This document shows, piece by piece, positions 23,109-43,633 of a DNA stretch of 64,000 bases. The stretch covers positions 1-64,000 of the forward strand of contig NZ_PQGG01000002.1 of the NCBI RefSeq assembly GCF_002915595.1. Reading direction: 5' to 3'. This DNA is from Zhongshania marina. GTDB taxonomy: Bacteria > Pseudomonadota > Gammaproteobacteria > Pseudomonadales > Spongiibacteraceae. The notes below the pieces were generated by a model that saw nothing but the letters and a program-made list of their open reading frames with translations, was not told where the DNA came from and made no database searches. A program made the position numbers and the translations under genes. Each line of letters begins with the position of its first letter. The stretch's first letter is position 1.

Positions 23109-23702
23109 TTGGGCAGACCATCCAAACCAATTATTTCGAAGGAGCTCGCGGCGCGGGCTGCACTGACCGTTATTGATAAGCTTGGGGTAGACGGCATGAG
23201 TCTACAACTGGTTGCCAAGGAACTTGGCGTAAAGGCGCCTTCGCTGTATTACCACTTCAAAAATAAGGCGGAAATGCTTGCTGAAGTGGCCAGAATTATC
23301 TTGATCGACGCCTCATCAAACAAGCCGCATATTGATGCCGATTGGCGCGAGGCCCAGATCGAACTTGCTATCGCCACCCGCCGCTCGATTCTTCGCCATC
23401 CTCGGGCCGCACCACTGATGCTGCAATTTTTCCCTCGCCATCTCATGCTAAAGCCCTACGACCATTGGAGCCATAAATTTGATGTGCCGCCAGAGCTGCA
23501 GCTATTAGTGATTGAGGGAGTAGAGAAACTTACCTTTGGGTCGGCTTTACTCGGTGCAATGAGTCGCGCAACAGGTACTCAACCGATGCCAGAGTTTGAC
23601 GCAGAAGACTACCCCCATCTCGATATCGCAATGCAAGCAAATACCCTTGATGAAGAAGGCATGTTTGTTGAAACGCTTCGCCGGTTTTTAGCCTCGTTCT
23701 AA
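23109..23702 (+). CDS. TetR/AcrR family transcriptional regulator
   Basis: 197-residue regulator at the left edge of the catabolic island. The HTH is in residues 8-50 (LAARAALTVIDKLGVDGM, then LQLVAKELGVKAPSLYYHFKNK). The C-terminal domain resembles the TetR_C_1 class with RHPRAAPLMLQFFPRH. Translation appears to begin at TTG 23109, since AAGGA lies 6 bases upstream and the HTH begins at once with GRPSKP; no ATG is available before the HTH. It converges with the acyl-CoA dehydrogenase gene, so it is placed to control the 24-28 kb operon, but no operator was matched to it. Confidence 0.88.
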   Translation: MGRPSKPIISKELAARAALTVIDKLGVDGMSLQLVAKELGVKAPSLYYHFKNKAEMLAEVARIILIDASSNKPHIDADWREAQIELAIATRRSILRHPRAAPLMLQFFPRHLMLKPYDHWSHKFDVPPELQLLVIEGVEKLTFGSALLGAMSRATGTQPMPEFDAEDYPHLDIAMQANTLDEEGMFVETLRRFLASF

Positions 23703-23720
23703 ATCTCAAACGTCGAATAC

Positions 23721-23752
23721 AAAAAAGGCGCCCTCAAAGTGGCGCCTTTTTT
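23721..23752. terminator. bidirectional intrinsic terminator
   Basis: A perfect 12-bp stem, AAAAAAGGCGCC against GGCGCCTTTTTT, with an 8-nt loop. It stops the TetR gene (+) and the acyl-CoA dehydrogenase operon (-), which converge here. Confidence 0.93.
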
Positions 23753-23793
23753 GTATCCTCAGATTTTAAAAATCATCTGAGTCATAGCTAAAA

Positions 23794-24978
23794 CTAGCGA
23801 CTTAAAGACTTCCAAATAATGGTGCGCTGAATTTCGCTGGTACCGCCATAAATAGTTTGAGCTCGCTCAAACAAATATGCGTCTGCAGAGAGGCTACCGT
23901 AGCTAGGTGTACTCAAGAGCGACTGCTGCCAATTCGGCAAATTCATGTCTGGAAACGCCAAGCCATGTCTCGCACTTAACAACATAAATAACTCGGTTAT
24001 ACGCTGAGCGCATTCCGTGCATTGAATTTTTAAGGACGACATCGCAGCGGGAGCCAACTCCCCCACCAAAGCCCGTAACACCGACACTTCCAAGGCGGCT
24101 AGCTCGATCTCTAGCGCCGCTAGCTGAGCAGCAAACAAAGGATCATCTATTAACTTCTCGGCCCTATCACCCGACACGTCTGATGCCAGTTTTCGCAATT
24201 TAGCAAGGTCCGCCTTTTTACGACCAATATGCGCGTAAGAAAGACGCTCGGTACTCAGTAATACATTTGCGTAATGCCAACCCTGTCCTTCTTCGCCAAT
24301 GCGATTGGCAACGGGAACACGTACGTTTTCAAAGCTAATACGATTCAGCTCCCAAGCACCGTTCATAGTAATAATGGGATGAACTTCAATACCTTCGGAA
24401 TGCATATCTACGCAAACAAATGAAATCCCTTCTTGCTTACGTTCACCTTTAGACGAGCGTACTAAACAAAAAATCCAATCAGCCCAGTGGCCTAATGTTG
24501 TCCAAACTTTATTGCCATTAAGAATATATTCGTCGCCGTCACGATCCGCCCGCATACCCAAACTGGCGAGATCAGAGCCTGATTCCGGCTCTGAATATCC
24601 TTGGGCCCACATACTCTTGGATGACAATATATCTGGCAACCAACGCTGTTTTTGTTCAGCGCCGCCAAATTCGACAATAATCGGTCCGACGTATATGACG
24701 GCCATCGGAATAATATTCGGCGCGCCGATACGCTCTAATTCAGACTCAAAAATATAGCGCTGAATTTCCGTCCAACCTGGCCCACCGTGCGTTTTTGGCC
24801 AAGCGATACCCAACCATTGCTTTGACTGCAAAGCCGCCTGCGATACGCAGTGATCTTCGCGGCTGAGGCGATCCCCCCGACGCACTTTTTCTAAAATATG
24901 CTGGGGATAATCGCACTCAAAAAATTGGCGTACCTCCTGTTGAAATGCGCTTTCGCTAGCGCTTAATTGCAAATTCAT
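23794..24978 (-). CDS. acyl-CoA dehydrogenase
   Basis: FAD-dependent alpha,beta-dehydrogenation of an acyl-CoA, 394 residues. Clear family motifs: GYSEPESGSDLASL (FAD/substrate), NGNKVWTTLGHWADW, and the C-terminal RAQTIYGGTSEIQR. At the position of the medium-chain catalytic Glu (YEGT) it has Gly (IYGGT), as in the long-subunit type used on pimeloyl-CoA and steroid side chains, where the base lies elsewhere. Last gene of a minus-strand run ligase - aldehyde dehydrogenase - this gene (gap 36 bp). No strong ribosome site seen. Substrate probably a branched or ring-bearing acyl-CoA, by context. Confidence 0.92.
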   Translation of the reverse strand: MNLQLSASESAFQQEVRQFFECDYPQHILEKVRRGDRLSREDHCVSQAALQSKQWLGIAWPKTHGGPGWTEIQRYIFESELERIGAPNIIPMAVIYVGPIIVEFGGAEQKQRWLPDILSSKSMWAQGYSEPESGSDLASLGMRADRDGDEYILNGNKVWTTLGHWADWIFCLVRSSKGERKQEGISFVCVDMHSEGIEVHPIITMNGAWELNRISFENVRVPVANRIGEEGQGWHYANVLLSTERLSYAHIGRKKADLAKLRKLASDVSGDRAEKLIDDPLFAAQLAALEIELAALEVSVLRALVGELAPAAMSSLKIQCTECAQRITELFMLLSARHGLAFPDMNLPNWQQSLLSTPSYGSLSADAYLFERAQTIYGGTSEIQRTIIWKSLSR

Positions 24979-25014
24979 TTCACTAATCTGCTTTGGCGCA
25001 TTGTCTGCTCCGTA

Positions 25015-26448
25015 TTATTTTGCCGCTTTTTTCGGAATATAAATTGCTTTCGGCTGAGTAAATTCCATCAGCCCCGCCATGCCATTTTCTACACCAAAGC
25101 CAGACTGTTTGTGACCGCCCAAAGGTGTCACTGGTGTCGATTGCAAATTTTGATTAATCCACACCGTGCCGGTATCAAGGCGCTTTGCCACCGCCAAAGC
25201 TTTATCAATATCTGACGACCACACCGCACCAGCTAAACCGTATTCGCTGTTATTCGCCCGCTCAATAACCTCATCTAAATCGCTGTATCGCAGCAAGGGT
25301 AATATCGGCCCAAATGCCTCTTCAGTTACGACTCGTGAATCTTCTGGCGGATTATCAACCAAAGTTAAGGGTAAAAAATAGCCACTACCTTGGGGTACCG
25401 CGCGCCCCTCTAACAAGGTCAATCCGTCTGCCCGCGCCTCGTCCATCAGGGCTTTGACACGCAAATACTGGGGTTTGTTTTGCACTGGACCAAATACTGT
25501 ATCGGGCTCCATACCATCTCCTACTTTTAAGAATTTGGCTAGGCCATGTAGCTTATCCCGCAGCGCATCGTATATATCATCGTGAACATACATGCGCTTG
25601 GTCGCGATACAAATCTGCGCAGTGTTATAGAACGCCCCCATGAATAATTCCTGGGCGACCTTGTCGACATCGACATCTGGAAGAATGATTGCCGCATCAT
25701 TGCCACCTAATTCCAGTGTTAGACGCTTAAGATCTTGTGCCGCCGAAGCCATAATACGTTTACCGGTTGCGGTTGAACCAGTAAACGATATTTTTGCAAA
25801 ACCGGGATGCGCAGTCATTAAAGGCCCGAGAGCATCGCCGCCAGTAATAATATTCAGCACCCCCGCCGGAAATACATCGCGCAGAATTTCGCCAATTTTC
25901 AACATCGCCAGTGGCGTATACGGAGATGGTTTTAATACCATCACATTACCAGTAAGCAAGGCGTGGGAAATTTTCCAGAACGCTAATAATACTGGGAAAT
26001 TCCACGGCACAATTGCACACACCACACCCAGGGGTTCGTGATGCACCTCTACTCGACGGGTTTCAGAGTCTTCAGTGATATCCACGGGTATGTCGAACTT
26101 GGCCATGCTCATTAGCCAATGGCTGGCACCCAGTATTTCTTCCTTAGCAAATTTAAGAGGACGCCCCTGTTCCAGGGTAAATATTTCAGCTAATTCGTCG
26201 GCGTGTGCAGCAATTACTTTTGCTGCATTTATTGCCGCCGCTGCGCGCTCTTTGTGCGGTGTTGCACGCCATTTCGGAAACGCAGCCGCCGCCGCGCTAA
26301 CCGCCATATCAAGCTCAGCAGCCCCCGCAACCGGCGCCTGCGCAAACACCTCACCGGATGCAGGATTTACCACACCCATTGTCTCTACGCCGGCAACACC
26401 TTTGCCGTTGATCGTCATCGTATAGGGTGTGGCTCGTAACTGACTCAT
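25015..26448 (-). CDS. NAD(P)-dependent aldehyde dehydrogenase
   Basis: Oxidises an aldehyde to the acid, 477 residues, the standard ALDH length. Seen: VPWNFPVLLAFWK, the cofactor loop FTGSTATGKRI, the general base Glu in LELGGNDAAI, the nucleophile Cys in YNTAQICIATKR, and the C-terminal GVENGMAGLMEFTQPKAI. GAGG lies 5 bases before the ATG. It sits between the acyl-CoA ligase and acyl-CoA dehydrogenase genes, so its acid product is probably the ligase substrate; a terminator-like hairpin separates it from the ligase gene. Confidence 0.94.
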   Translation of the reverse strand: MSQLRATPYTMTINGKGVAGVETMGVVNPASGEVFAQAPVAGAAELDMAVSAAAAAFPKWRATPHKERAAAAINAAKVIAAHADELAEIFTLEQGRPLKFAKEEILGASHWLMSMAKFDIPVDITEDSETRRVEVHHEPLGVVCAIVPWNFPVLLAFWKISHALLTGNVMVLKPSPYTPLAMLKIGEILRDVFPAGVLNIITGGDALGPLMTAHPGFAKISFTGSTATGKRIMASAAQDLKRLTLELGGNDAAIILPDVDVDKVAQELFMGAFYNTAQICIATKRMYVHDDIYDALRDKLHGLAKFLKVGDGMEPDTVFGPVQNKPQYLRVKALMDEARADGLTLLEGRAVPQGSGYFLPLTLVDNPPEDSRVVTEEAFGPILPLLRYSDLDEVIERANNSEYGLAGAVWSSDIDKALAVAKRLDTGTVWINQNLQSTPVTPLGGHKQSGFGVENGMAGLMEFTQPKAIYIPKKAAK

Positions 26449-26460
26449 ATCAACCTCATA

Positions 26461-26490
26461 AAAAAATAGCCGACATGATCACTTGTCGGC
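26461..26490 (-). terminator. intrinsic terminator between ligase and aldehyde dehydrogenase genes
   Basis: Minus strand: GCCGACA pairs with TGTCGGC around an 8-nt loop and is followed by TATTTTTT. It lies after the ligase stop (26517) and just before the aldehyde dehydrogenase start (26448), so it may attenuate rather than fully end transcription. Confidence 0.75.
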
Positions 26491-26516
26491 GAAATAAAAT
26501 CGTCCACAAATTTGCT

Positions 26517-28040
26517 TTAACGCACTTTACTTAATTCCACGTGGGCATTGGCGTATTTAACCCGCAGTGCGGGTTTCGCGATTTTGCCCGTTGCCAAACG
26601 GGGCAATGCCTCGCCTTCCAAGACCACATAACGCGGAACTTTAAATGCGCTCAAATGGGTATTGCAGTGCTGAATAACAGTCTCAATGGTGAGATCGTCG
26701 CGGCCATAAATAATCGCTAGCGGGGTTTCACCAAAGCCGTCGTCTTTAGCTGCAATGACCGCCACCTCATTCACGCCGTCTATCTCAGAAATAACGCGCT
26801 CCAACTCCGCAGCTGAAATATTTATACCGCCAGAGATAATAATATCCTTGAGGCGATCTAACATGGTGAGCAGACCATTCTCATCTACCATGCCCAAATC
26901 GCCGGTGTGCAGCCATCCATTCACCAGCGTCTTCGCTGTCGCCTCTGGATCGTTCCAGTAGCGGGTCATTATGCCCGCCCCTTTAATCACGATTTCACCT
27001 GGCGTATTTGGCCCGCAGAATTCGCCTTTATCGTCCACAATAGCAATCCGCGTAAACGCTGAGCCACGACCACATTTTTCTGGATCGCTGAGTGCCGCAG
27101 ACCTTGAGTTGACTGTCGCCTGCCCTCCCGCTTCTGTCTGGCCGTAGAGCTGACGTAGCGTAACGCCCTTCTCCAACCACGTGTCTAGCAATTGATTAGA
27201 AACCCTCGCGCCGCCAACCAGACAGTAACGCAAGCTAGCAAGATCCGCCGCCGCAAAACTCTCGCTGGCCGCCATCCGCTCGAAGAATATAGGCGCGCCC
27301 ATCATTACGGTAATACCGTGCTCCTGAATCATTTGAATAGCGCGCAGCGGCTCAAAAGCCTCTTCAACAAAGATCGTGCCGCCGTAAGCCAAATATTGCG
27401 TTGTAACCACGTAACCCGCAGAGGTGCACAGCGGGCCAAACAACAGCACTTTTGCCTTATCAATTGAGTATGGTTCGGCAATGGCGGTTTCCGACACATA
27501 GGAACTTAAGGTGCGATGGGAATACACCACGCCCTTGGGGTGCCCAGTTGATCCACTGGTTGGAATAATAACGACTTCGTCATCGAGACCAATTTCCGGA
27601 CGCGGAGCGCTATTAGCGCTGGCCCCGTTTCTAAATTGATCAATCACACTGATATCAAACACCGTGCAGCCTTCCACTTTGGCCTGCGTAGCATTCGCCA
27701 GCTCGGCGCGTGCGGCGTCGTGAAAAATAAACTTCGACTGGTAGCGTTCACCAACCATATAGGCGACTTCGCTTACCGTAAAACGGGGATTCACCGGCGC
27801 CAAAATACCGCCAGACAACATCACCGCCTGCGACAGCACTATCCATTCCATGCTGTTGGTGGCCAAAATCGTAACGCGCTCGCCGCGCTGTAAACCTTCA
27901 GCTATAAGCCAGTCCGCAATCGCCTCGGCCCAGCAGTTAAGCTCACTGTATGTGATTTGATCCTTTGCAGTGACAATTGCGGCAGTGTCTTTACGATCAA
28001 CTGCCCACCACTTAAAAATGTCTATTAGCGTACTGCTCAC
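26517..28040 (-). CDS. acyl-CoA synthetase (AMP-forming ligase)
   Basis: Activates a carboxylic acid to its CoA thioester through an acyl-adenylate, 507 residues. Motifs: P-loop PTSGSTGHPKGVVYSH, A5 QLYGQTEAGG, A7 GWLHTGDLG, A8 RLKDIIISGGINIS, and the catalytic Lys near the C-terminus in LATGKIAKPALR. The start is GTG 28040 with GGAGG 6 bases upstream; a TTG at 28052 is in frame but poorly placed. It is the first gene of the minus-strand unit and is divergent from an acyl-CoA dehydrogenase gene. Fits activation of the acid formed from an alicyclic or terpenoid alcohol; chain specificity not readable. Confidence 0.93.
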   Translation of the reverse strand: MSSTLIDIFKWWAVDRKDTAAIVTAKDQITYSELNCWAEAIADWLIAEGLQRGERVTILATNSMEWIVLSQAVMLSGGILAPVNPRFTVSEVAYMVGERYQSKFIFHDAARAELANATQAKVEGCTVFDISVIDQFRNGASANSAPRPEIGLDDEVVIIPTSGSTGHPKGVVYSHRTLSSYVSETAIAEPYSIDKAKVLLFGPLCTSAGYVVTTQYLAYGGTIFVEEAFEPLRAIQMIQEHGITVMMGAPIFFERMAASESFAAADLASLRYCLVGGARVSNQLLDTWLEKGVTLRQLYGQTEAGGQATVNSRSAALSDPEKCGRGSAFTRIAIVDDKGEFCGPNTPGEIVIKGAGIMTRYWNDPEATAKTLVNGWLHTGDLGMVDENGLLTMLDRLKDIIISGGINISAAELERVISEIDGVNEVAVIAAKDDGFGETPLAIIYGRDDLTIETVIQHCNTHLSAFKVPRYVVLEGEALPRLATGKIAKPALRVKYANAHVELSKVR

Positions 28041-28365
28041 GACTTCCTCCAACGGGCCAACCCTTGGTTATATTCTTTATATTTATGACTAAAGACGGCC
28101 ATTCACCCGAAAATACTGCAGGGGGAAATATCACGCCTTCAATATAGCTCTTTTACGCGCGCCAAGATTATCCTCCAACGCCAATTTTCTCAGTAAGCTC
28201 CACCAATATGAGTAATTACAAGGTAGATTAAAACTGAGTAAAACCAAGTCTTGCAGCGCACAACAAGATAATCTAATCTAATTAGATTAATAGCTGCCGT
28301 CAACAACTACGTCATGTCACGCTCGGCAAATTGACTCACTAAACGATACAACGCAGGACTCAGCA
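28041..28365. promoter_or_regulatory. divergent promoter region with palindrome at 28274-28289
   Basis: Noncoding spacer between the ligase gene (-) and an acyl-CoA dehydrogenase gene (+). It contains a perfect 16-bp palindrome, TAATCTAATTAGATTA, at 28274-28289, about 77 bp upstream of the plus-strand start. The half-site ATCTAAT recurs in the divergent regions at 35.3 and 37.5 kb. A TetR-type repressor site controlling both directions is likely; which regulator binds is unknown. Confidence 0.5.
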
Positions 28366-29592
28366 ATGAATATTGAATGGACCGCCGACGAACTAAAATT
28401 CCGCGACGAAGTGCGCGATTTCTTCAAACTGGAATTAAGTGAGGACATTCGAGCCGCTGGAAAATTAATGACCAGCGTGTATTCAGACCATGAACTGTCG
28501 ATGAAATGGCAGCACAAATTAGTCGCCAAGGGCTGGGCCGCCCCCTCTTGGCCTGTGGAATACGGCGGTTGCGACTGGACGGTTGCACAGCATTATATTT
28601 TCGCCCGCGAGCGCGCACTTGCCGGCGCACCACCATTATCGCCAATGGGCATACAGATGTGTGCACCCGCCATTATTTGCTTCGGCACCCCTGAACAAAA
28701 AGACTTCTTCCTCCCCCGTATGCTTAGCGGCGAACACTTTTGGTGTCAGGGTTACTCGGAACCCGGTTCCGGCTCAGACCTGGCCTCATTGCAAATGCCT
28801 GCAATAGACGACGGCGATCATTTTATTTGCAATGGTTCAAAAATATGGACCACCCACGCCGATGAAGCTAACTGGATTTTTTGCCTAGTACGCACCACCA
28901 AAGCAAGTAAACCTCAGCTAGGCATTACATTTTTAGTGATCGACATGAACACCCCCGGCATTGAAGTGAAACCGATTATTTCACTCACCGGTGAGCACAT
29001 TCAAAACGAAGTATTTTTCCAAGATGTACGCGTACCAAAAACCAATGTTATTGGTAAGGTCGATGAAGGTTGGACCGTGGCCAAATACCTGCTCGAATTT
29101 GAGCGCGGTGGCGCAGCGTATGCGCCGCTCATGCAAATTCGCTTAGAGGAAATACGTGAATTTGCCGCGACCGTTCCCGGCGATAGCTGCCCGCGCCTTA
29201 TCGACGACCCACTCTTTGCCGCTAAACTAGCCCAAGCAGAGATAAAAGCTGCCACCTTAGAAATGTATGAATTACGAACGATGTCGGCTATATCTGCCGG
29301 CGGCTCACCAGGAACATCGGCGTCGGTAATGAAAATTCTGGGCACTGAATTGCAACAATTGGTAAGCGAGGTCGCCTTGGAAGCTAGCGCGGGCTATGGC
29401 AATAGCTACCAGCCCCAAGCCTGCGCCCCCGGCGGTGCAACTATTTACCCCCATCAAGAATCGGGCTTAGAAGGCCCCCTCGACGCAGCACTGGCTCCGC
29501 TGCGCTACTTTAATGAGCGAGCAGGTAGTATTTATGCAGGTTCGAATGAAATCCAAAGAAATATTTTAGCGAAGGCTGCACTGGGGCTTTAA
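28366..29592 (+). CDS. acyl-CoA dehydrogenase, pimeloyl-CoA dehydrogenase large-subunit type
   Basis: 408-residue FAD acyl-CoA dehydrogenase. Motifs: GYSEPGSGSDLASLQM, NGSKIWTTHADEANW, and a C-terminal RAGSIYAGSNEIQRNILAK, again lacking Glu at the YEGT position. An insertion around 345-375 (PQACAPGGATIYPHQESG) is seen in large-subunit enzymes that pair with a catalytically incomplete small subunit. The minus-strand dehydrogenase at 31.1-32.2 kb looks like that partner. AGGA is 8 bases before the ATG. Transcribed alone from the divergent promoter that carries the 28,274 palindrome. Confidence 0.92.
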   Translation: MNIEWTADELKFRDEVRDFFKLELSEDIRAAGKLMTSVYSDHELSMKWQHKLVAKGWAAPSWPVEYGGCDWTVAQHYIFARERALAGAPPLSPMGIQMCAPAIICFGTPEQKDFFLPRMLSGEHFWCQGYSEPGSGSDLASLQMPAIDDGDHFICNGSKIWTTHADEANWIFCLVRTTKASKPQLGITFLVIDMNTPGIEVKPIISLTGEHIQNEVFFQDVRVPKTNVIGKVDEGWTVAKYLLEFERGGAAYAPLMQIRLEEIREFAATVPGDSCPRLIDDPLFAAKLAQAEIKAATLEMYELRTMSAISAGGSPGTSASVMKILGTELQQLVSEVALEASAGYGNSYQPQACAPGGATIYPHQESGLEGPLDAALAPLRYFNERAGSIYAGSNEIQRNILAKAALGL

Positions 29593-29639
29593 CACCCCTT
29601 TGTGCAGCGTATAAAAAAAATATAAAAATAGCGCTTTTA

Positions 29640-32239: not shown

Positions 32240-32299
32240 AAAATCTTGTTCCGCTAATAAAACCAAATAATGTCAAAATATCTTTGCGAACCGCCGGCT

Positions 32300-35188: not shown

Positions 35189-35559
35189 AATCATTCCTCT
35201 CTTATTCGTATGCGGCCAAGCTAATCCCAGCCCAAAGCTGCATTAAACTTAGCTTTAAAACAGCGGGGTGAACTCACAAGCATCGTAAAAATGCCGATTA
35301 CTCATTATGCATCCAGACTAAAAGAGCATTTATCTAATGTCAATAGTTTTAAGTGTATATTCAAGTGCGCTTACAAAGCCTTTACAAAACTAATAACGAT
35401 AGATAATATGATTTGAACGATGCTGCTAAGTGCCCATATTGCTTGCCGCATCAGCGCGACTAGACTGACTGACAGCAAGGCCTCGTCGTATCCGACGACG
35501 CCATCTAGACCCAAAATAATTGAATATACTCAAGCCACGACTTGAGAGGGATTATCGTC
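35189..35559. promoter_or_regulatory. 371-bp divergent promoter region, Rieske oxygenase / P450
   Basis: No gene is visible. The motif ATCTAATGTCAATAG is at 35332-35346; on the minus strand it includes TTGACA. The same 15-mer with one change occurs at 37487-37501 before the GST and DUF35 genes. A small stem TCGTCG-TATC-CGACGA lies at 35483-35498, and CTCAAG/CTTGAG (35529-35546) overlaps the ribosome site of the P450 gene. Likely joint control of both directions. Confidence 0.5.
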
Positions 35560-36759: not shown

Positions 36760-36769
36760 GCAAAACACC

Positions 36770-36800
36770 ATGCATACAGGCTCACTGAGCCTGTATGCAT
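36770..36800. terminator. 31-bp palindrome between convergent P450 and GST genes
   Basis: ATGCATACAGGCTCA and TGAGCCTGTATGCAT are perfect 15-base arms around a single C. In RNA this is a strong hairpin on either strand, positioned 10 bp after the P450 stop and 12 bp after the GST stop. No long T-run follows on either strand, so a bidirectional terminator or processing/stability hairpin is the likeliest role. Confidence 0.65.
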
Positions 36801-36812
36801 AAAGTGTGAACT

Positions 36813-37421
36813 TTAACTTTTTGCCCTTGCCGCTTGATACGCCGAACGACTTTGCAAACGATCAAAATAAACCGTGATAGCCGGCGTAAAATATTTTTGA
36901 TATCCAAACAAGCTGCTCAACAATAAAGCATAGCCCACTGAAATATCCGCCGCCGTAAATCGCTCACCGCACAAATAAGTTTTGCCTTGCAAACCTGCAT
37001 CCAGCACCTTTAAGCGCTCCTGCAAGAAAACACTAAGGTCTTCGCCCACCACCGGCAGACGTTGTGGCTTAGGTAGAAACAGGGTGTAGCGCAAAATTGT
37101 GGCCTGAATATTCGCCAATGAAGCCTCGCCAAAATGCATCCAGTTCAACCAGCTACCGTAGTCTGCTTCATCGGGTGTAAGCCGCAGCTCACCACCGTCG
37201 TAGCGATTAAGCAGATACTCTAATATGGCAACAGATTCACTCATTTTGGTATCGCCATCGACCAAATACGGCAAAGTACCAAGAGGGTTAACCGCCAAAA
37301 ACTCCGGGGCCTTTACCCGCGGAGGGAACGGCACAACATCTAAATCGTAAGACACGCCCAACTCTTCCAGTAACCACACGCAGCGCAAAGAGCGGGTATC
37401 AACACTATGGTATAGCTTCAT
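36813..37421 (-). CDS. glutathione S-transferase
   Basis: Cytosolic-type GST, 202 residues. The N-terminal thioredoxin fold starts MKLYHSVDTRSLRCVWLLEE; the cis-Pro and glutathione-binding turn is TLPYLVDGDTKMSESVAI (Glu-Ser). The helical domain from about 90 ends ITVYFDRLQSRSAYQAARA. No obvious catalytic Tyr, with Ser or Arg of the DTRS turn more likely, as in bacterial beta/theta types. AGGA precedes the ATG. It is divergent from the DUF35-thiolase operon, so it probably detoxifies or processes an electrophilic intermediate of the pathway; this is inference. Confidence 0.9.
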   Translation of the reverse strand: MKLYHSVDTRSLRCVWLLEELGVSYDLDVVPFPPRVKAPEFLAVNPLGTLPYLVDGDTKMSESVAILEYLLNRYDGGELRLTPDEADYGSWLNWMHFGEASLANIQATILRYTLFLPKPQRLPVVGEDLSVFLQERLKVLDAGLQGKTYLCGERFTAADISVGYALLLSSLFGYQKYFTPAITVYFDRLQSRSAYQAARAKS

Positions 37422-37683
37422 TTTTTATTCCTGTAATGACAATGAGAACGCGAAATCATCAAGCTAGCAGCATGAATCAAAAATAATCTAATGACAATAG
37501 ATTGTAGAGTTTGTAAGCTTAGCAGGCAGAAAAGCAGTGCAGCGACTAAGATTTTCATAAGCTTTAATTGCTAAAAAACGCATAAGCCAAAATCAACGCG
37601 AACATGGGGTACTCATCTTATATCCGCTCCCCCAGCGCAATCTAAAAAGCAATAATTTGAACACAAGGTGTCAGGAGAATCGT
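37422..37683. promoter_or_regulatory. divergent promoter region, GST / DUF35-thiolase operon
   Basis: AATCTA (37485-37490) and TAGATT (37498-37503) form an inverted repeat with a 7-bp centre, containing ATCTAATGACAATAG. This 15-mer differs by one base from the motif at 35332-35346. It lies about 64 bp upstream of the GST start and 180 bp upstream of the DUF35 gene. A good candidate operator for a TetR regulator of the island. Confidence 0.5.
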
Positions 37684-38124
37684 GTGAAAGGTATCGGAGC
37701 AGACGAAGCATATTGGCAGGCACTCAGTGCTGGCGAACTCAAACTACCGCAATGTAGCGCATGTGGCAAAACACATTGGCCCGCAGTATGGCGCTGTGGC
37801 GAGTGCGGCAGCTGGGAGCACGAATGGAAGTCTTTTGAGTTCAGCGGCACTATTTTTAGCTGGGCACGCACTTGGCATGAATTCGGTGCGGCCAAAGAAT
37901 TCGGCCTCCCCTATGTGAGTGTCGTAGTCGAGATCGATAACGCTAATGGCAGACGTTTATTAGGCACCATCGCTGGCAATGCGGAAAACATCCGCATTGG
38001 TGATCGCGTGCGCGGTGAAGTCATTAGCGTCAATATTGAAGACGAAGTCATACCCGCACTGCGCTGGCATTTAGACGACAAGCCCTCTACCGCTACAAAA
38101 TTCAACTCGGGAGCAACACTATGA
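37684..38124 (+). CDS. DUF35 OB-fold zinc protein, partner of the thiolase-fold enzyme
   Basis: 146-residue acyl-CoA-associated protein of the DUF35 family: an N-terminal rubredoxin-like zinc ribbon with two Cys pairs (CSACGK, CGECGS) and a C-terminal OB-fold (GTIFSWARTWHEFG, LGTIAGNAENIRIGDRVRGE). Such proteins bind and are required by thiolase-fold partners; in actinobacterial steroid catabolism the DUF35 part of ChsH2 activates the aldolase Ltp2. The start is GTG 37684 with AGGAG 6 bases upstream. Its stop overlaps the next gene's ATG (ATGA), implying a fixed protein pair. Confidence 0.88.
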   Translation: MKGIGADEAYWQALSAGELKLPQCSACGKTHWPAVWRCGECGSWEHEWKSFEFSGTIFSWARTWHEFGAAKEFGLPYVSVVVEIDNANGRRLLGTIAGNAENIRIGDRVRGEVISVNIEDEVIPALRWHLDDKPSTATKFNSGATL

Positions 38125-39284
38125 ACCGCGCATCCCAAGCTAAAGTCGCCGTCGCCGGCGTCGGACTACGACAGTACAAACGCGGCGGCGCAACGCTGCC
38201 AGAGCAAGGCATATTAATCAGAGCAATTATCGATGCCTGTGAGGATGCAGGATTTAATCCAGCAGATGTAGATGGCTTTGTCTCCTACGGCGACGACAAA
38301 AATGAACCCGTCAGGCTGATGCCAGACTTAGGAACCAAAGAGTTACGCTGGAATTCCCAGGTTTGGGGCGGTGGCGGTGGCGGTATTGCAGCGGCCTTCG
38401 GCCAAGCGGCAGCAGCAATTATTAGCGGCCAAGCCAATGCCGTCATCGTATTTAGAGCCCTCGCCCAAGGCAATAGTGGGCGCATGTCCGCCGCAGTTAT
38501 GCGCCACCACCTGAATGACCATATCATGGGTGCTGGGCTTATTGCGCCAGCCCAAATTTGTGCTCTGCGCGCCCAACGGATGTTCGAATATCACCAAGTA
38601 CCACACTCGGTTACTGAAGAATTGGTAAAGGCTTCTTACTACCACGGCGCCAAAAATCCCGAGGCCAGCTCCTTCGGCAAGGAACTCGATCTAGAAGCCT
38701 ATCGCACTGGTCGCTGGGTCACGGAGCCGTTCAGATTATTCGACTGCTCTAGGGAAAACGACGGCGCCGGCGCACTCCTGCTAGTTTCTACCGAACAGGC
38801 CCGCGACCTTAAAAAGCCGCCCATAACGCTTTTGGGGGTGGCCAACGGTGCAAGCCAAGGCTGGGGAGACCTGATCGAAAACGATACCGATTACGCCTCT
38901 GCCGGTTTCAAACCCGTCGCAGATCGGCTGTGGGAACAAACCGGCTTGCAACCAAAAGATATAGACGTTGTTCAGCTATACGAAAACTTCAGCGCCCAAG
39001 GTATCGCCTCATTAATTGATCACGGCTTTTGCACCTATGAGAACGTCGCTGAGTTCGTGAAATTTGAAAACCTCATTGCAGATGGTGGCAAATTGCCGGT
39101 AAACACCTCCGGCGGCAACTTTGCCCAAGGCTTTATTCACGGCATAGGGACTCCCATAGAAGCTATTCGAGTATTACGTGGCGAATCGGCAAACAACGTC
39201 GCCAATGCCAAAACCTGCTTACTCGCCGGCGGCCCAGGAGCCCCCACCGTTAGCTCGGCCATTTTTAGCGTAGATGATCGTTAA
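38121..39284 (+). CDS. thiolase-fold protein without nucleophilic Cys, Ltp2-like aldolase candidate
   Basis: 387 residues, lipid-transfer-protein/SCP-2 thiolase superfamily. The place where thiolases carry the acyl-accepting Cys is a glycine tract (VWGGGGGGIAAAFGQAA, 82-97), so it is not a conventional thiolase. It retains HGIGTPIEAIRVLRG (His340) and has Tyr287 in VVQLYENF, which may correspond to the catalytic Tyr of Ltp2. Ltp2 with a DUF35 partner performs retro-aldol cleavage of a beta-hydroxyacyl-CoA side chain. The 4-bp overlap with a DUF35 gene supports the same kind of complex. Substrate unknown; calling it acetyl-CoA acetyltransferase would be misleading. Confidence 0.82.
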   Translation: MNRASQAKVAVAGVGLRQYKRGGATLPEQGILIRAIIDACEDAGFNPADVDGFVSYGDDKNEPVRLMPDLGTKELRWNSQVWGGGGGGIAAAFGQAAAAIISGQANAVIVFRALAQGNSGRMSAAVMRHHLNDHIMGAGLIAPAQICALRAQRMFEYHQVPHSVTEELVKASYYHGAKNPEASSFGKELDLEAYRTGRWVTEPFRLFDCSRENDGAGALLLVSTEQARDLKKPPITLLGVANGASQGWGDLIENDTDYASAGFKPVADRLWEQTGLQPKDIDVVQLYENFSAQGIASLIDHGFCTYENVAEFVKFENLIADGGKLPVNTSGGNFAQGFIHGIGTPIEAIRVLRGESANNVANAKTCLLAGGPGAPTVSSAIFSVDDR

Positions 39285-39426
39285 TTCGTGCTCATTACCG
39301 TTTGAGCATGGCGCATCATATCTAAGGCATGCAAAATACGGCCTACGTAATTTCCAGCTCCAGCGAGTAATTCAAGCCGCGCACAGCGCGGCACTCCTAG
39401 GCGCTGCCATATAAGGATGATAGAAA

Positions 39427-40224
39427 ATGAATTTTCAAGAAATCACCGTTGAGATTCGCGAATCCGTCGGCATTCTCACCCTCAACGCACCGGAAACCCT
39501 CAATGCGCTGACACCGATTATGGTAGGCGAAATCACCGAGGCAATTGACTATATTGCCAACAATGCACGCGCAATGATCCTCTGCGGCTCAGGTCGCGGA
39601 TTTTGCTCAGGCGCCTCGCTAAACCCAGCCAACCCCCTTACACCCATGTCAGCAGATCGCAGCCAGCGCGATATCGGTATTATTTTAGAGAAGTTTCTAA
39701 ACCCAATAATGACCAAGCTCAAAAACCTGCCCATTCCTTGGATTAGCGCCGTTCGCGGCAGTGCCGCTGGTTTTGGCGCCTCGCTTGCACTTGCCGGCGA
39801 CATGATCCTTGCCAGCGAAAACGCCACTTTTATACAAATCTTCTCAAAAATCGGCCTTGTTCCCGACGGCGGCGCCACCCACTTACTTAGCCGCACAATC
39901 GGCCGCGCCCGCACCATGGAATTAATGCTAACAGGAGATCGCTTAAGCGCAGAAAAAGCCCTGGACTGGGCGCTGGTCAACCGTGTTGTTACAGACGACA
40001 CCTTAGAGGAAGAGGCCTTCAATACCGCCCTAGCCCTTGCCAAGGGCCCAACCGTCGCCCTAAGCCTAATTCGCAAAGCGGTTTGGACCGCCGTCGACTC
40101 AAATTGGGAAACCAGCTTACAAACCGAGCGTGAATTGCAGAAAGTAGCGGGACAAACCGCCGACTTTGACGAAGGTGTTGCCGCCTTTGTAGAAAAACGC
40201 GCAGCCAAATTCACCGGTCAATAA
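39427..40224 (+). CDS. enoyl-CoA hydratase/isomerase family protein
   Basis: 265-residue crotonase-fold enzyme. Oxyanion-hole elements are GSGRGFCSGASL (near 57) and the second helix segment GSAAGFGASLALAGDMI; the catalytic region reads SKIGLVPDGGATHLLSR. The Asp-Gly-Gly (PDGG) at the second catalytic position is the isomerase-like pattern (PaaG type), so either hydration or double-bond isomerisation is possible. AAGGA is 9 bases before the ATG. Follows the thiolase-fold gene by 142 bp and precedes a second crotonase gene by 27 bp. Confidence 0.92.
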   Translation: MNFQEITVEIRESVGILTLNAPETLNALTPIMVGEITEAIDYIANNARAMILCGSGRGFCSGASLNPANPLTPMSADRSQRDIGIILEKFLNPIMTKLKNLPIPWISAVRGSAAGFGASLALAGDMILASENATFIQIFSKIGLVPDGGATHLLSRTIGRARTMELMLTGDRLSAEKALDWALVNRVVTDDTLEEEAFNTALALAKGPTVALSLIRKAVWTAVDSNWETSLQTERELQKVAGQTADFDEGVAAFVEKRAAKFTGQ

Positions 40225-40251
40225 TTTACTAATGTATCAGGACGGCTTTTG

Positions 40252-41139
40252 ATGAACTTCCAATATCTACTTTATAAACTTGAAGACGGCATTGCGACGA
40301 TCACCATTAACCGTCCGGACAAACTTAACGCCTTCACCCCCGCAATGGCGGATGATTTAATCTCGGTGATAGATCACATCGACGCAGACGACGATGTCAA
40401 AGCCGTGGTGATTACCGGCGCCGGCCGCGCTTTCTGCGCAGGAGCTGACTTATCATCCGGCAAAGATACCTTTAATGGTGAAGGCGACGGTGAATCTGCG
40501 GTACGTGCAGGCGATACGGTAGATTACAGCGACGAGTCTGTTCGAGATATCGGCGGTCTTGTCACCCTGCGACTCTATCGCTGCCTTAAACCAATTATTG
40601 CCGCCATCAACGGCCCTGCGGTGGGTGTTGGCATTACCATGACCCTGGCGATGGACATTCGACTCGCCAGTGAAAATGCCAAGGTTGGCTTTGTTTTTGC
40701 TCGCCGCGGCATTGCGCCAGAAGCGGCCTCCTCGTTCTTTCTTCCCCGCATTGTAGGGATATCTCGCGCACTAGAATGGTGCTTTAGCGGCCGTGTTTAC
40801 CCAATTTCCGAGATCAAAGACAGTGGATTGATCAGAAAAGTGTGTTCTGAGCAAGAATTACTTCCTGAAGCCTATGCAATTGCACGCGAAATCGTAGACA
40901 ATACGGCTCCGGTTTCTGTAGCCCTGATCAGACAAATGTTGTGGCGGGGGCTGGAAATGAACCACCCTATGGATGCCCACAAGCTAGACAGCAGGGTAAT
41001 ACTTAGCCGGGGTCGCAGCAGCGATGCCGCCGAAGGTGTTGTATCATTCATAGAAAAGCGTCCACCGGAATTTAAAAATCAGGTGTCGAAAGACATGCCA
41101 GATTTTTACCCGTGGTGGGACGAACCAAAGTACCTATAA
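40252..41139 (+). CDS. enoyl-CoA hydratase family protein
   Basis: Second crotonase-fold enzyme, 295 residues, longer than usual by an insert after the first oxyanion motif (AGRAFCAGADLSSGKDTFNG to about 105). The second catalytic segment is RRGIAPEAASSFFLPRIVG, with Glu at the family's acid/base position. The insert is seen in members annotated as acting on bulky or branched enoyl-CoAs. ATG 40252 follows AGGA; TTG 40249 is in frame. In the plus-strand operon DUF35 - thiolase - two hydratases - reductase - ferredoxin. Probable role: hydration ahead of retro-aldol cleavage. Confidence 0.91.
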   Translation: MNFQYLLYKLEDGIATITINRPDKLNAFTPAMADDLISVIDHIDADDDVKAVVITGAGRAFCAGADLSSGKDTFNGEGDGESAVRAGDTVDYSDESVRDIGGLVTLRLYRCLKPIIAAINGPAVGVGITMTLAMDIRLASENAKVGFVFARRGIAPEAASSFFLPRIVGISRALEWCFSGRVYPISEIKDSGLIRKVCSEQELLPEAYAIAREIVDNTAPVSVALIRQMLWRGLEMNHPMDAHKLDSRVILSRGRSSDAAEGVVSFIEKRPPEFKNQVSKDMPDFYPWWDEPKYL

Positions 41140-41212
41140 AATATAATCCATGAGTCTTACGGCAGCCCGCAAGACAACATGAAACTGAACAAGAGCCTCC
41201 TGGAAATGACTT

Positions 41213-42433
41213 ATGAGTGAACACTGCATTATTATTGGAGCCAGCCACGCCGCTGCCCAATTAGTATCCAGCCTCCGCCAAGAGGGCTGGGAAGGGAAAA
41301 TCTCGCTAATCGGCGACGAACCTAATTTACCCTACCACCGTCCGCCCTTGTCAAAAGCCTTTTTTGTCGGCGAGAAAACCGAAGACGAGCTATTAATTCG
41401 CGCGGCGGATTTTTACGAAAAAAATAAGGTTGATCTACTTTTAGGCTCACGCGTGACCGTCATTGATCGCGACGCCAAGAAAATCACCCTAGAAGACGGC
41501 GCCGAAATTTCTTATACCAAACTGGCCCTCACCACCGGCGCTCGAGTTCGCAAAATCCCCTTCACCGGCAGTGAACTCGCCGGCGTGTTCTATATGCGCG
41601 ATCTTAACGATGTTAAGCAAACCCACAAATTTACTGGCCCAGGCAAATCAGCAGTTATAATTGGTGGTGGCTATATCGGCTTAGAAACCGCCGCCTCGCT
41701 GCGTAAAATTGGCATGAAGGTAACGGTTATCGAAGCCATGTCGCGGGTATTACAGCGTGTAACAGCCCCCGAAGTGTCGGCATTTTACACCCGTGTACAC
41801 ACCGAGGAAGGTGTTGATATCCGCACCGAAGCCGGTGTCGATGCCATAGTCGGTGAAAAACATGTAGAAGGCGTTCGCCTCGCAGATGGCAGCACCGTAG
41901 CTGCTGACCTTGTGATCATTGGCGTGGGTGTTATCCCTAACATCGAGCTTGCTGAATCGGCTGGCCTCACCATAGACAACGGTATTGCAGTAAACGAGTT
42001 TGCCACCACCAACGACCCAGATATTGTGGCTGCGGGCGACTGCACCAATCACTACAACCCAATTTATGACCGTAAACTCCGCTTGGAATCGGTACAAAAC
42101 GCTACTGATCAAGCTAAAATTGCGGCCAAAAGCATTTGCGGTAAACCAGAGGAGTATAATGCGCTTCCGTGGTTCTGGTCAGATCAATACGATTTGAAAC
42201 TTCAAATTGCTGGACTCTCACAGGGATTTGACGAGGTCATTATCCGTGGTGACAGTGAGCAAGGCCGTAGTTTTGCTGCATTCTATTTCAGTGAAGGTCG
42301 TTTTATTGCAGTAGATGCGATTAACCGGCCAAAAGAGTTCATGATGAGCAAGCGAGCCTTAACCGCAGGGCAAACCGCTGACCCACTGAAACTTGCCGAC
42401 GAGTCTATTGAAATCAAAGACGCCTTTAACTAA
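41213..42433 (+). CDS. FAD-dependent ferredoxin reductase, putidaredoxin-reductase (CamA) type
   Basis: NADH-dependent reductase passing electrons to a 2Fe-2S ferredoxin, 406 residues. FAD-binding start IIIGASHAAAQLVSSLRQ and YHRPPLSKAF; NAD loop VIIGGGYIGLETAASLRK; second FAD motif DIVAAGDCTNHYNP. This is the one-FAD, oxygenase-coupled class that includes CamA and rubredoxin reductases. Its stop is 23 bp before a putidaredoxin-like gene, and a P450cam-like gene is in the same island, so a complete three-component P450 system is encoded here; it may also serve the Rieske oxygenase. Confidence 0.93.
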   Translation: MSEHCIIIGASHAAAQLVSSLRQEGWEGKISLIGDEPNLPYHRPPLSKAFFVGEKTEDELLIRAADFYEKNKVDLLLGSRVTVIDRDAKKITLEDGAEISYTKLALTTGARVRKIPFTGSELAGVFYMRDLNDVKQTHKFTGPGKSAVIIGGGYIGLETAASLRKIGMKVTVIEAMSRVLQRVTAPEVSAFYTRVHTEEGVDIRTEAGVDAIVGEKHVEGVRLADGSTVAADLVIIGVGVIPNIELAESAGLTIDNGIAVNEFATTNDPDIVAAGDCTNHYNPIYDRKLRLESVQNATDQAKIAAKSICGKPEEYNALPWFWSDQYDLKLQIAGLSQGFDEVIIRGDSEQGRSFAAFYFSEGRFIAVDAINRPKEFMMSKRALTAGQTADPLKLADESIEIKDAFN

Positions 42434-42456
42434 TTCAAAGTACGAGAACACATACA

Positions 42457-42777
42457 ATGCCTTTAATTATTTATAAATCTCACGATGGCAGCACCCAAGA
42501 AGTTCATGCGGAAGCTGGCACGAGCATTATGCAAGCCGCTGTAGACAACGGTATCGACGGCATTCTCGGTGAATGTGGCGGCTGCTGCAGCTGCGCTACT
42601 TGTCACTGCTATGTTGACCCAGCTTGGGTTGCCAAAGCTGGCGAGCCAGACAGCACCGAAAAAGACATGCTGGACTGCGTGCTAGAGCCTCAGGAAACAA
42701 GCCGCTTGAGCTGCCAAATTATTATTACTGACGAAATGGACGGCATGATTATCGCTATGCCCGAGTCTCAGTACTAA
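42457..42777 (+). CDS. 2Fe-2S ferredoxin, putidaredoxin-like
   Basis: Vertebrate/putidaredoxin-type [2Fe-2S] ferredoxin of 106 residues, exactly the length of putidaredoxin. Cluster ligands by pattern are Cys40, Cys46, Cys49 (ECGGCCSCATC) and Cys86 (SCQIII). It starts with YKSHDG, like putidaredoxin's YVSHDG, and ends with an aromatic residue, Tyr106, where putidaredoxin has the functionally important Trp106. Three extra Cys (43, 44, 51) around the cluster are unusual. Last gene of the plus-strand operon, after its reductase. Confidence 0.95.
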   Translation: MPLIIYKSHDGSTQEVHAEAGTSIMQAAVDNGIDGILGECGGCCSCATCHCYVDPAWVAKAGEPDSTEKDMLDCVLEPQETSRLSCQIIITDEMDGMIIAMPESQY

Positions 42778-42893
42778 TATCGAGACCTTTGGATAGGGCT
42801 TACATCTAAGCCCTATCTAGCCATCCCCCCATTTAGCTGCCTTTCTTCACCTCTAATATAGCTAAGCAAACAAAAACTAAGCGATCAGTTAAA

Positions 42894-42915
42894 TTTATGC
42901 TAGGATCTGCATAAA
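42894..42915 (+). promoter_or_regulatory. inverted repeat operator upstream of TetR gene
   Basis: TTTATGC (42894-42900) and GCATAAA (42909-42915) are perfect 7-bp arms with an 8-bp centre, ending about 52 bp before the TetR start. Position and geometry fit an autoregulatory TetR operator. Confidence 0.55.
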
Positions 42916-42967
42916 CCAGCCAACTTTTTGTTAATCACCGCTATTTATATTGGAAAAACAGGCCGAT

Positions 42968-43633
42968 ATGACCGTTGCCGTAAGCAAGCCCAAGCGTAAA
43001 ACCGCCAAAAAACGAAATAACTCCAAAGACCAACTACTCAACGCCGCGAGCACCATACTCACCGAGCGCAATGCGATCGACATATCACTCAGTGATATCG
43101 CGGAGGCGTCAGGACTCAACTCGGCCCTAATCAAATACCATTTTGGCAATAAAGAAGGCCTGCTACTGGCGCTGGTTGAACGAGATGCCGCGTCAACACT
43201 TGGTTTGCTTGATCAACTGCTGGCTATGGATGTATCGCCCATACAAAAAGTGCGTTTACACGTTGCTGGCGTTGTTAAAACTTATGCCAAAGTCCCCTAT
43301 TTAAACCGCCTTATTCACACCCTGATGGACAGCAAGGATCCCATTGTTGCCGAAGAAATGGTGAATTTTTTTGTGAAGCCCCTGCTCGAATCCCAAACCA
43401 AAATACTCGACGAGGGTTTGCAAGCCGGCATTTTTCATAAAATAGACCCGATGATGTTTTATTATTCCGTTATCGGCGCCTGCGACTATATTTTTTACGC
43501 CCGCCACTCACGCAAAATTGTCACCGGAAATTCCGAACTCACGCCAGAAATCCGCGACAAATATATTAATTTTGTCGCCGATACCATCCTCAAAACCCTT
43601 TGCATAGATTCAAATACAAGCATTAAGACCTAG
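42968..43633 (+). CDS. TetR/AcrR family transcriptional regulator
   Basis: 221-residue regulator at the right edge of the island. A Lys/Arg-rich leader (KPKRKTAKKRNN) precedes the HTH (KDQLLNAASTILTERNAIDI, LSDIAEASGLNSALIKYHFGNK). The C-terminal domain is of the common TetR_C type (MVNFFVKPLLESQTKILDEG). ATG 42968 has AGG 6-7 bases upstream; TTG 42950 is also in frame. Its stop TAG (43631-43633) shares its last base with the left end of the MITE-like element, so the native C-terminus may have been altered by insertion. Likely controls the adjacent operon. Confidence 0.88.
   Translation: MTVAVSKPKRKTAKKRNNSKDQLLNAASTILTERNAIDISLSDIAEASGLNSALIKYHFGNKEGLLLALVERDAASTLGLLDQLLAMDVSPIQKVRLHVAGVVKTYAKVPYLNRLIHTLMDSKDPIVAEEMVNFFVKPLLESQTKILDEGLQAGIFHKIDPMMFYYSVIGACDYIFYARHSRKIVTGNSELTPEIRDKYINFVADTILKTLCIDSNTSIKT

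What the first reader, a model, noticed from the sequence alone, without database searches (positions are those of the whole stretch)
23109..43633. A 20-kb catabolic island for an unidentified alicyclic or terpenoid/steroid-like substrate
Between two TetR genes sit a P450cam-like P450 with its own putidaredoxin and reductase homologues, a Rieske oxygenase, a GMC alcohol oxidoreductase, two aldehyde dehydrogenases, an acyl-CoA ligase, three acyl-CoA dehydrogenases, two crotonases, and a DUF35/thiolase-fold pair. Seen: gene content and operon layout (four divergent or convergent transcription units). Inference: oxygenation, oxidation to acid, CoA activation, dehydrogenation, hydration and C-C cleavage act in sequence. 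I do not recognise this set as a published pathway, and no ring-cleavage dioxygenase or KstD-type steroid gene is present, so it is not a standard steroid cluster.
Basis: partly seen in the sequence, partly recalled or inferred. Interest (0 to 1): 0.8.

Follow-up and report, generated by a model that had tools for sequence, protein, structure and literature searches.

The report
Co-regulated genes degrading ring-shaped compounds
A marine bacterium carries a real, jointly controlled set of genes that probably oxidises a ring-shaped, terpene-like molecule and cuts off its side chain with an unusual relative of a steroid-cleaving enzyme; related sets with the same DNA switch occur in distant bacteria, but the substrate is still unknown.

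Summary
The gene content is confirmed and the genes belong together. The window is from a Zhongshania genome. G006 and G016 keep the set in the same order, four other Zhongshania genomes keep 9-15 of 19 genes reordered, and sphingomonads, Solimonas, Pseudomonas, Cupriavidus and Brevundimonas have versions. A 19-bp palindrome (AATCTAATGNCATTAGATT) stands in three of four divergent promoter regions. A matrix trained on Zhongshania sites finds 64 sites in 21 non-Zhongshania orthologous loci, 55 in 23 actinobacterial loci of the same aldolase clade (0.1 and 0.0 expected) and none in 35 loci of the sister clade. An unlinked CoA-transferase gene carries the site too. So it is a regulon, TetR1 being the likely repressor (inferred). 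The DUF35/thiolase-fold pair resembles steroid aldolase Ltp2-ChsH2 but has Phe in place of the acid Tyr. Best reading: P450 hydroxylation, oxidation to acid, CoA activation, dehydrogenation, hydration, retro-aldol side-chain cleavage; substrate perhaps a cyclic isoprenoid, unproven. Corrections: ferredoxin, reductase and one crotonase belong to a resident locus that survives without the cluster; strand blocks number seven, not four; a glutathione transferase was missed.

The parts
23109..23702 (+). TetR1, likely repressor of the regulon
   Evidence: TetR_N; N terminus matches tetracycline TetR model NF010319, 57.6 bits, far below its 265 cut-off; in all 7 cluster genomes and 2 of 14 others
23794..24978 (-). 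ACAD1, PimC-like acyl-CoA dehydrogenase
25015..26448 (-). ALDH1, aldehyde dehydrogenase
26517..28052 (-). acyl-CoA ligase (AMP-binding)
28270..28288 (.). operator in the CoA ligase | ACAD2 region, perfect match
   Evidence: matrix score 26.1
28366..29592 (+). ACAD2, PimC-like acyl-CoA dehydrogenase
29640..31070 (-). ALDH2, MdlD-like aldehyde dehydrogenase (264 bits, below the 550 cut-off)
31106..32266 (-). ACAD3, PimD-like acyl-CoA dehydrogenase
32300..33904 (-). GMC alcohol oxidoreductase
34010..35194 (-). Rieske oxygenase, GbcA/CntA-like
35331..35349 (.). operator in the Rieske | P450 region, 3 mismatches
   Evidence: matrix score 25.2
35387..35405 (.). second, weaker operator in the Rieske | P450 region
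   Evidence: 4 mismatches; matrix score 22.0
35542..36759 (+). CYP101-like P450 (start at 35560 is also possible)
36813..37421 (-). glutathione S-transferase
37485..37503 (.). operator in the GST | DUF35 region, 1 mismatch
   Evidence: matrix score 28.9
37657..38124 (+). DUF35 (ChsH2 C-terminal type) partner of the lyase
38121..39284 (+). Ltp, thiolase-fold C-C lyase of the F type (YENF motif, Phe338)
39427..40224 (+). ECH1 crotonase, resident locus
40249..41139 (+). ECH2 crotonase, candidate hydratase; broken or nearly gone in 4 of 4 examined sites without the cluster
41213..42433 (+). FdR, ferredoxin reductase, resident locus
42457..42777 (+). Fdx, 2Fe-2S ferredoxin, resident locus
42950..43633 (+). 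TetR2, second regulator
43905..44723 (-). SDR dehydrogenase, travels with the set in G006, G016 and G018

Best explanation
A catabolic regulon for an alicyclic, probably cyclic-isoprenoid compound. Shown by computation: the genes stay together across species, share one operator, and include a relative of steroid side-chain aldolases. Inferred: the CYP101-like P450 hydroxylates an unactivated C-H; GMC and ALDH take the alcohol to an acid; the ligase (with a CaiB/BaiF transferase encoded elsewhere under the same operator) makes the CoA thioester; the PimC/PimD-like dehydrogenases desaturate it; ECH2 hydrates it; the DUF35-Ltp pair cleaves the beta-hydroxyacyl-CoA by retro-aldol into a ketone plus a short acyl-CoA. 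The Rieske enzyme adds a second oxygen, on the ring or at the beta carbon. TetR1 represses the set through the palindrome until the substrate or an intermediate binds. My estimates for the parts: coherent co-regulated set 0.95; TetR1 as regulator 0.75; retro-aldol C-C cleavage 0.65; cyclic isoprenoid substrate 0.4.
For: Set kept in 6 other Zhongshania genomes: 19, 18, 15, 11, 11 and 9 of 19 genes in the fetched stretches of G006, G016, G020, G019, G018, G008 (the aldolase of G019 and TetR1 of G008 lie just beyond). Operator in three divergent regions; 64 sites in 18 of 21 orthologous non-Zhongshania loci, 55 in 19 of 23 actinobacterial F-type loci, 0 in 35 Y-type loci, backgrounds 0.10, 0.00, 1.90. 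One of the four genome-wide places at up to 2 mismatches stands about 195 bp before a CaiB/BaiF gene that is 55% identical to one inside the G020 cluster. Aldolase fold nearest Ltp2-ChsH2, then Sal among characterised aldolases; base Tyr conserved. Rieske 28 of 45 F-type against 0 of 35 Y-type loci, CoA ligase 31 against 1, ALDH1 37 against 0, P450 24 against 2. ECH2 is decayed in 4 of 4 examined cluster-less sites. CYP101B1/C1 take ionones (PMC8197338, table).
Against: No chemistry or expression was tested. Phe338 removes the general acid known from Ltp2 and no Cys replaces it as in Sal, so the lyase reaction could differ; this part of the model has low confidence (residues 331-340 mean pLDDT 56). 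No operator stands before TetR1 itself in the window, and within 44 F-type loci TetR1 and operator do not co-vary significantly (27 both, 4 TetR1 only, 10 operator only, 3 neither; p=0.40). The GMC gene is in 0 of 23 actinobacterial loci and their P450 and Rieske genes are only about 25-34% identical to the window's. The P450 has lost the polar camphor contacts, so substrate inference from the family is weak. No dedicated Rieske reductase was found in the set.
Confidence: 0.6

Rival explanations
1. Petroleum alicyclics: the pathway degrades alkyl-cycloalkanes or naphthenic acids of crude oil, the P450 oxidising the alkyl end and the lyase removing the side chain at a branched carbon.
For: The close relative G016/L087 is a MAG named Lab_640_Crude; Zhongshania was enriched by crude oil in Labrador Sea sediment (PMC8478444, passages). 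The same enzyme logic fits.
Against: That paper's passages attribute alkane and some monoaromatic genes to Zhongshania, not this set. CYP101 relatives with known substrates take terpenoids (PMC8197338, table).
Confidence: 0.2
2. Steroid or bile-acid side-chain removal: the set is a diverged igr-type module feeding a ring-degradation pathway encoded elsewhere.
For: Aldolase fold and DUF35 partner match Ltp2-ChsH2; two-type acyl-CoA dehydrogenases as in ChsE1-E2. Extradiol dioxygenase-like genes occur elsewhere in the genome.
Against: 31% identity to Ltp2 and a different active site; no MaoC hydratase. Dioxygenase-like hits at E <= 1e-20 are in 21 of 21 genomes, with and without the cluster, none over the family cut-off, so they neither support nor exclude it.
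Confidence: 0.1
3. Aryl or alkyl acid pathway of the ibuprofen type: the Rieske enzyme itself makes the tertiary alcohol beside the CoA ester and the lyase releases the side chain.
For: The ipf genes of pIBU218 also pair a ring oxygenase with a thiolase-fold protein, DUF35 and CoA ligase (ipf names assigned by me from gene order and PMC9195938, passages). Rieske genes go with F-type aldolases, 28 of 45 against 0 of 35 loci.
Against: Low identity to the ipf proteins: Ltp 26%, Rieske 26% over 198 columns, ligase 27%. The window's Rieske is GbcA/CntA-like, and P450, GMC and ALDH genes point to an unactivated start substrate.
Confidence: 0.15
4. Unrelated metabolic genes that merely neighbour each other.
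For: ECH1, FdR and Fdx are resident genes of another locus; GC is not deviant.
Against: Conserved set and shared operator for the remaining genes.
Confidence: 0.03

Closest known systems
Steroid C3 side-chain module: igr operon (ChsE1-E2, ChsH1-H2, Ltp2) and C. testosteroni ORF40-44
   Same: CoA-thioester logic; two-type acyl-CoA dehydrogenases; thiolase-fold lyase beside DUF35; a P450 near the module (cyp125 beside igr is recalled; Novosphingobium ES2-1 plasmid p3 shows one)
   Different: Lyase 31% identical, YENF/Phe instead of YDHF/Tyr; free-standing DUF35, no MaoC; crotonase, GMC, GbcA-like Rieske, other operator
Sal-Shy bile-acid aldolase
   Same: Thiolase fold with DUF35 (9myr); base Tyr kept; the second Tyr of Ltp2 is absent in both (PMC12329534, passages)
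   Different: Sal has YDCY with catalytic Cys and Gln at the second place; the window has YENF and Phe; 22% identity
Ibuprofen ipfABDEF of pIBU218
   Same: Rieske oxygenase, thiolase-fold protein, DUF35 and CoA ligase together
   Different: 26-27% identity; two-subunit dioxygenase; no P450, GMC or ALDH in the adjacent ipf genes listed
P450cam / CYP101 family
   Same: Best PDB matches; Asp251-Thr252 pair and heme Cys357 kept
   Different: 34% identity; positions 96, 101, 185 and 297 are Met, Leu, Phe and Thr (wild-type P450cam residues recalled, the aligned chain being a mutant); ferredoxin and reductase are resident
Tetracycline repressor TetR and tetO
   Same: TetR1 residues 11-101 match NF010319; the operator core has the TCTA-N7-TAGA plan that I recall for tetO
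   Different: 57.6 bits against a cut-off of 265; controls catabolic genes

Membership tests
Ltp2-ChsH2 steroid aldolase | Thiolase fold with DUF35 partner gene | tested here: met
Ltp2-ChsH2 steroid aldolase | YDHF motif with second catalytic Tyr | tested here: not met
   YENF and Phe338
Ltp2-ChsH2 steroid aldolase | Sequence within the Ltp2 clade | tested here: not met
   31% identity; Comamonas against actinobacterial Ltp2 is 61-64% (PMC12502768, passages); no joint tree with Ltp2 was built
Sal aldolase | YDCY motif with catalytic Cys | tested here: not met
   YENF; motif from PMC12329534 passages
Retro-aldol lyase activity (works like) | Cleaves beta-hydroxyacyl-CoA | not testable with these tools
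   Only the base Tyr is conserved
CYP101 | Best match to P450cam-type chains, heme Cys and acid-alcohol pair | tested here: met
CYP101 | At least 40% identity for formal family naming (recalled rule) | tested here: not met
   34% to P450cam, 133 of 392; identity to the other CYP101 chains not computed
Camphor pathway | Baeyer-Villiger monooxygenase and camphor-contact residues | tested here: not met
   No such gene among the scanned products; contacts changed
Ibuprofen ipf system | Orthologous ipfABDEF genes | tested here: not met
   26-27% identity
Single TetR1-controlled regulon | Common operator at the transcription units | tested here: met
Single TetR1-controlled regulon | TetR1 is the protein that binds the operator | tested here: inconclusive
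   Phyletic and motif support but p=0.40 for co-variation inside F-type loci

The most novel reading that the evidence does not exclude
The F-type DUF35-Ltp pair is a third catalytic class of thiolase-fold C-C lyase (neither YDHF/Tyr nor YDCY/Gln) and the marker of one cross-phylum regulon, kept with its operator in Actinobacteria and Proteobacteria, in which a GbcA-type Rieske oxygenase rather than a hydratase supplies the hydroxyl that the lyase needs: an undescribed route for removing side chains from cyclic isoprenoids.
Probability: 0.25. Interest if true: 0.78.

Novelty: new variant of a known kind. Interest (0 to 1): 0.62.

Why it matters
It turns a list of neighbouring genes into a testable regulon: one operator predicts which genes belong to the pathway, and already picked out an unlinked CoA-transferase gene. 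It also marks a clade of steroid-aldolase relatives with a changed active site. If the substrate is found, this would be a widespread route for breaking down cyclic terpenoid-like carbon or petroleum alicyclics, and a possible new C-C lyase for biocatalysis.

Tried and rejected
Rejected: a canonical camphor pathway (no Baeyer-Villiger gene among scanned products, contacts lost); a standard igr-type steroid module; membership in the ipf system; close plasmid-borne relatives of the aldolase (9 records at E <= 1e-60, all below 60% identity, best 43.5%; 296 records at 1e-10, also all below 60%). Abscisic-acid catabolism was considered because Rhodococcus sp. P1Y degrades it to a methyl ketone and Novosphingobium sp. 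P6W uses it (PMC7996341, passages); the passages shown name no genes, so it stays a lead.

Led nowhere: TIGR03213 as a steroid indicator rang in 21 of 21 genomes, all below cut-off; the operator-like place C30:11991 has no clear target; one search found nothing because its E-value limit was too strict; one script failed on an edge case and was rerun; collecting the structure took several tries (then 84).

Papers: ten searches. 28, 38 and 94 returned none; some returned listings. I read passages of PMC12329534, PMC12502768, PMC7996341, PMC8197338, PMC9195938 and PMC8478444, no whole text. That I found no description of this set rests on these searches of an open-licence library; none searched for the operator letters.

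Neighbour counts use 10-kb flanks and 55-bit homology and include short contigs; on the 57 loci of 20 kb or more the differences for Rieske, CoA ligase, ALDH1, TetR1, GMC and P450 remain. Neighbours that differ little: ACAD2 (23 of 45 against 16 of 35, p=0.66), ECH2 (23 against 11, p=0.11); ACAD3 differs (21 against 4, p=7e-4). The tree is midpoint-rooted, so which state is ancestral is open. The operator threshold of 12 bits was my choice; at 16 and 20 bits the counts are 50/34/0 and 34/11/0. Eleven fetched stretches of other Zhongshania regions (196,504 bases) hold 3 sites against 0.8 expected.
Full report
OBSERVATION. Two details change: from TetR1 to TetR2 the genes lie in seven same-strand blocks, not four, and a glutathione S-transferase gene (36813-37421) was missed. 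The window is part of a 4.13-Mb, 46-contig genome.

SYNTENY. Taking TetR1 to SDR as 19 genes, the stretches fetched around the P450 hold, at 45% identity or more, 19 in G006 and 18 in G016 (82-100% identity, same order with insertions), and 15 in G020, 11 in G019, 11 in G018 and 9 in G008 (48-82%, blocks reordered). The aldolase of G019 lies 0.6 kb beyond the fetched stretch, TetR1 of G008 at 19.9 kb of the same contig, TetR1 of G016 on another contig beside UvrD, and TetR1 of G018 2.4 Mb away. These six and the window's genome are the 7 of 18 genomes of the genus with a P450 of 68% identity or more. More distant P450 copies (54-57%) occur in G018, about 110 kb from its set, and on a 3.1-kb contig of G008. 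Aldolases of 61-80% identity with versions of the set around them occur in Solimonas, Pseudomonas, Cupriavidus, Brevundimonas and 17 sphingomonad loci.

WHAT BELONGS AND WHAT DOES NOT. In G005, G008, G009 and G010 the same flanking genes (UvrD-like and VanY) are only 5.4-8.1 kb apart. Between them ECH1, FdR and Fdx are complete, and no other gene of the window's set is found there. FdR is in 19 of 21 family genomes at E <= 1e-150. So ECH1, FdR and Fdx are resident; they may serve the P450 but are not its private partners. ECH2, in contrast, lies in two frames in G009, in three pieces in G008, is reduced to short remnants in G010, and leaves only 76- and 85-bp DNA matches in G005, while it is complete in G006 and G016. 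In G004 and G007, which lack the aldolase at E <= 1e-80, TetR1 stands between UvrD and FdR; what lies in the 1.1 kb between TetR1 and FdR was not examined. These remnants suggest loss of the cluster from this site in several lineages rather than recent gain; G008 has its cluster on another contig. Four relatives have a second ferredoxin (42-44%): beside the P450 in G019, G020 and G008, between Rieske and GMC in G018. The window's best match to it is the resident ferredoxin. G006, G016, G008 and G018 have a TonB-dependent receptor in the cluster, and G020 one of 65% identity 5 kb past the last cluster gene found. The window has 47 bp at that place; the three matches in its genome at E <= 1e-60 are 29-35% identical, and the one in the window is 24%.

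CO-REGULATION. Palindrome analysis of the intergenic regions showed a common element: AATCTAATCTAATTAGATT at 28270, TATCTAATGTCAATAGTTT at 35331 and AATCTAATGACAATAGATT at 37485, in the CoA ligase | ACAD2, Rieske | P450 and GST | DUF35 regions. The fourth divergent region, UvrD | TetR1, has none. The window has 4 matches at up to 3 mismatches against 0.37 expected, the fourth (10281) lying elsewhere. A matrix from 21 Zhongshania sites was tested on loci not used for training. At 12 bits it gives 64 sites in 18 of 21 orthologous loci (background 0.10), 55 in 19 of 23 actinobacterial loci of the same aldolase clade (0.00), and 0 in 35 loci of the sister clade (1.90). In the 21 orthologous loci sites lie from 30 bp inside to 350 bp before homologues of Rieske (18), GMC (16), CoA ligase (10), ALDH1 (8), TetR1 (5), DUF35 (5), Fdx (2), ACAD1 (1) and ACAD2 (1); 16 of 64 have none of the window's genes near, and a site between divergent genes counts twice. 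Sites also stand within 100 bp before the TonB receptors of G006, G016, G018 and G008 and just before that of Sphingopyxis L099. In the whole own genome 16 places match at up to 3 mismatches against 10 for the reversed control pattern. Of the four at up to 2 mismatches two are in the cluster, one (C30) has no clear target, and one is about 195 bp before a CaiB/BaiF CoA-transferase-like gene (C25), 55% identical to the gene inside the G020 cluster and 37-40% to those in four sphingomonad loci (the CaiB/BaiF name is recognised by eye, no family scan was run on it). TetR1 is the likely binder. It is in all 7 cluster genomes and 2 of the 14 others, its homologues are in 31 of 45 F-type and 0 of 35 Y-type loci, its N terminus matches the tetracycline repressor model, and the operator core has the TCTA-N7-TAGA plan that I recall for tetO. 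Inside 44 F-type loci TetR1 and operator do not co-vary significantly (p=0.40), so this assignment is inference.

THE ALDOLASE. The 38121 product has the thiolase fold (AlphaFold, mean pLDDT 83), closest to Ltp2-ChsH2 (6ok1); Sal (9myr) comes next among characterised aldolases. Published work gives Ltp2 a YDHF motif with Tyr base plus Tyr344 as acid, and Sal a YDCY motif with Gln at the second place (PMC12329534, passages). The window has YENF and Phe338; the model is weak around residue 338 (mean pLDDT 56 for 331-340), so the equivalence rests on sequence alignment. Of 96 loci examined (80 named, 16 unnamed), 49 have Phe (48 YENF, 1 YENM) and 47 have Tyr (46 YENF, 1 YDAF). On a tree of 81 rows the Phe group (46) and the Tyr group (35) are split by one branch with 100/100 support. 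The Phe group is the one with oxygenation and activation genes nearby: Rieske 28 of 45 against 0 of 35 loci, P450 24 against 2, CoA ligase 31 against 1, ALDH1 37 against 0, TetR1 31 against 0, GMC 16 (all in the orthologous loci) against 0; ACAD3 21 against 4; ACAD2 and ECH2 do not differ significantly. The actinobacterial P450 and Rieske genes are distant homologues (about 25-34%), though one Rieske also matches the GbcA model best. IpfD of the ibuprofen plasmid has YDAF and Tyr (ipf assignment mine from gene order and PMC9195938, passages).

MECHANISM. Inferred order: P450 hydroxylation, GMC and ALDH oxidation to an acid, ligase or CoA transferase, PimC/PimD-like dehydrogenation, hydration by ECH2 or direct hydroxylation by the Rieske enzyme, and retro-aldol release of a short acyl-CoA with a ketone left on the ring. 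The P450 keeps the Asp-Thr pair and heme Cys but not the polar camphor contacts. Its closest solved relatives are camphor P450s and CYP101J2 (that CYP101J2 takes cineole is recalled), and CYP101B1/C1 take ionones (PMC8197338, table). This favours a cyclic isoprenoid without proving it; crude-oil alicyclics remain a rival, since Zhongshania responds to crude oil (PMC8478444, passages).

VERDICT. A real set of genes under a shared operator, new (within the searches told below) in its combination, its aldolase clade and its operator, built of known enzyme families: a new variant of a known kind. The substrate is open.

Noticed in passing
window 12950-14197 and 7374-9914: A second P450 gene lies beside a PLP-dependent enzyme gene (11862-12872), and a TonB receptor plug-domain gene stands nearby.
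   Followed up: no
L037:5409-9867 (G016): In G016 two genes sit between CoA ligase and ACAD2: one that looks by eye like an ADP-forming acyl-CoA synthetase, and a thiolase-like/crotonase fusion whose thiolase part is 58% identical to the thiolase-like protein of G019; the window's genome has only a 33% match.
   Followed up: partly
L175:6274-13386 (Novosphingobium sp. ES2-1 plasmid p3): A conjugative plasmid carries two acyl-CoA dehydrogenases, MaoC genes, a lipid-transfer protein with the YDHF motif and a P450 side by side.
   Followed up: no
L174:7525-11143 (pIBU218): The ibuprofen plasmid has a second DUF35/lipid-transfer pair, with YDHF motif, beside a CaiB/BaiF gene and a crotonase, apart from the ipf genes.
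   Followed up: no
window 43630-43902: The TetR2-SDR intergenic stretch has three nested or neighbouring inverted repeats, the outer with 35-nt arms 89% complementary, which may be a small mobile or structured element; no second copy of its end was found in the window at up to 2 mismatches apart from a 2-mismatch match at 33767.
   Followed up: partly
window 29593-29639: The window's strain has 47 bp where G006 and G016 carry a TonB receptor gene with its own operator.
   Followed up: partly
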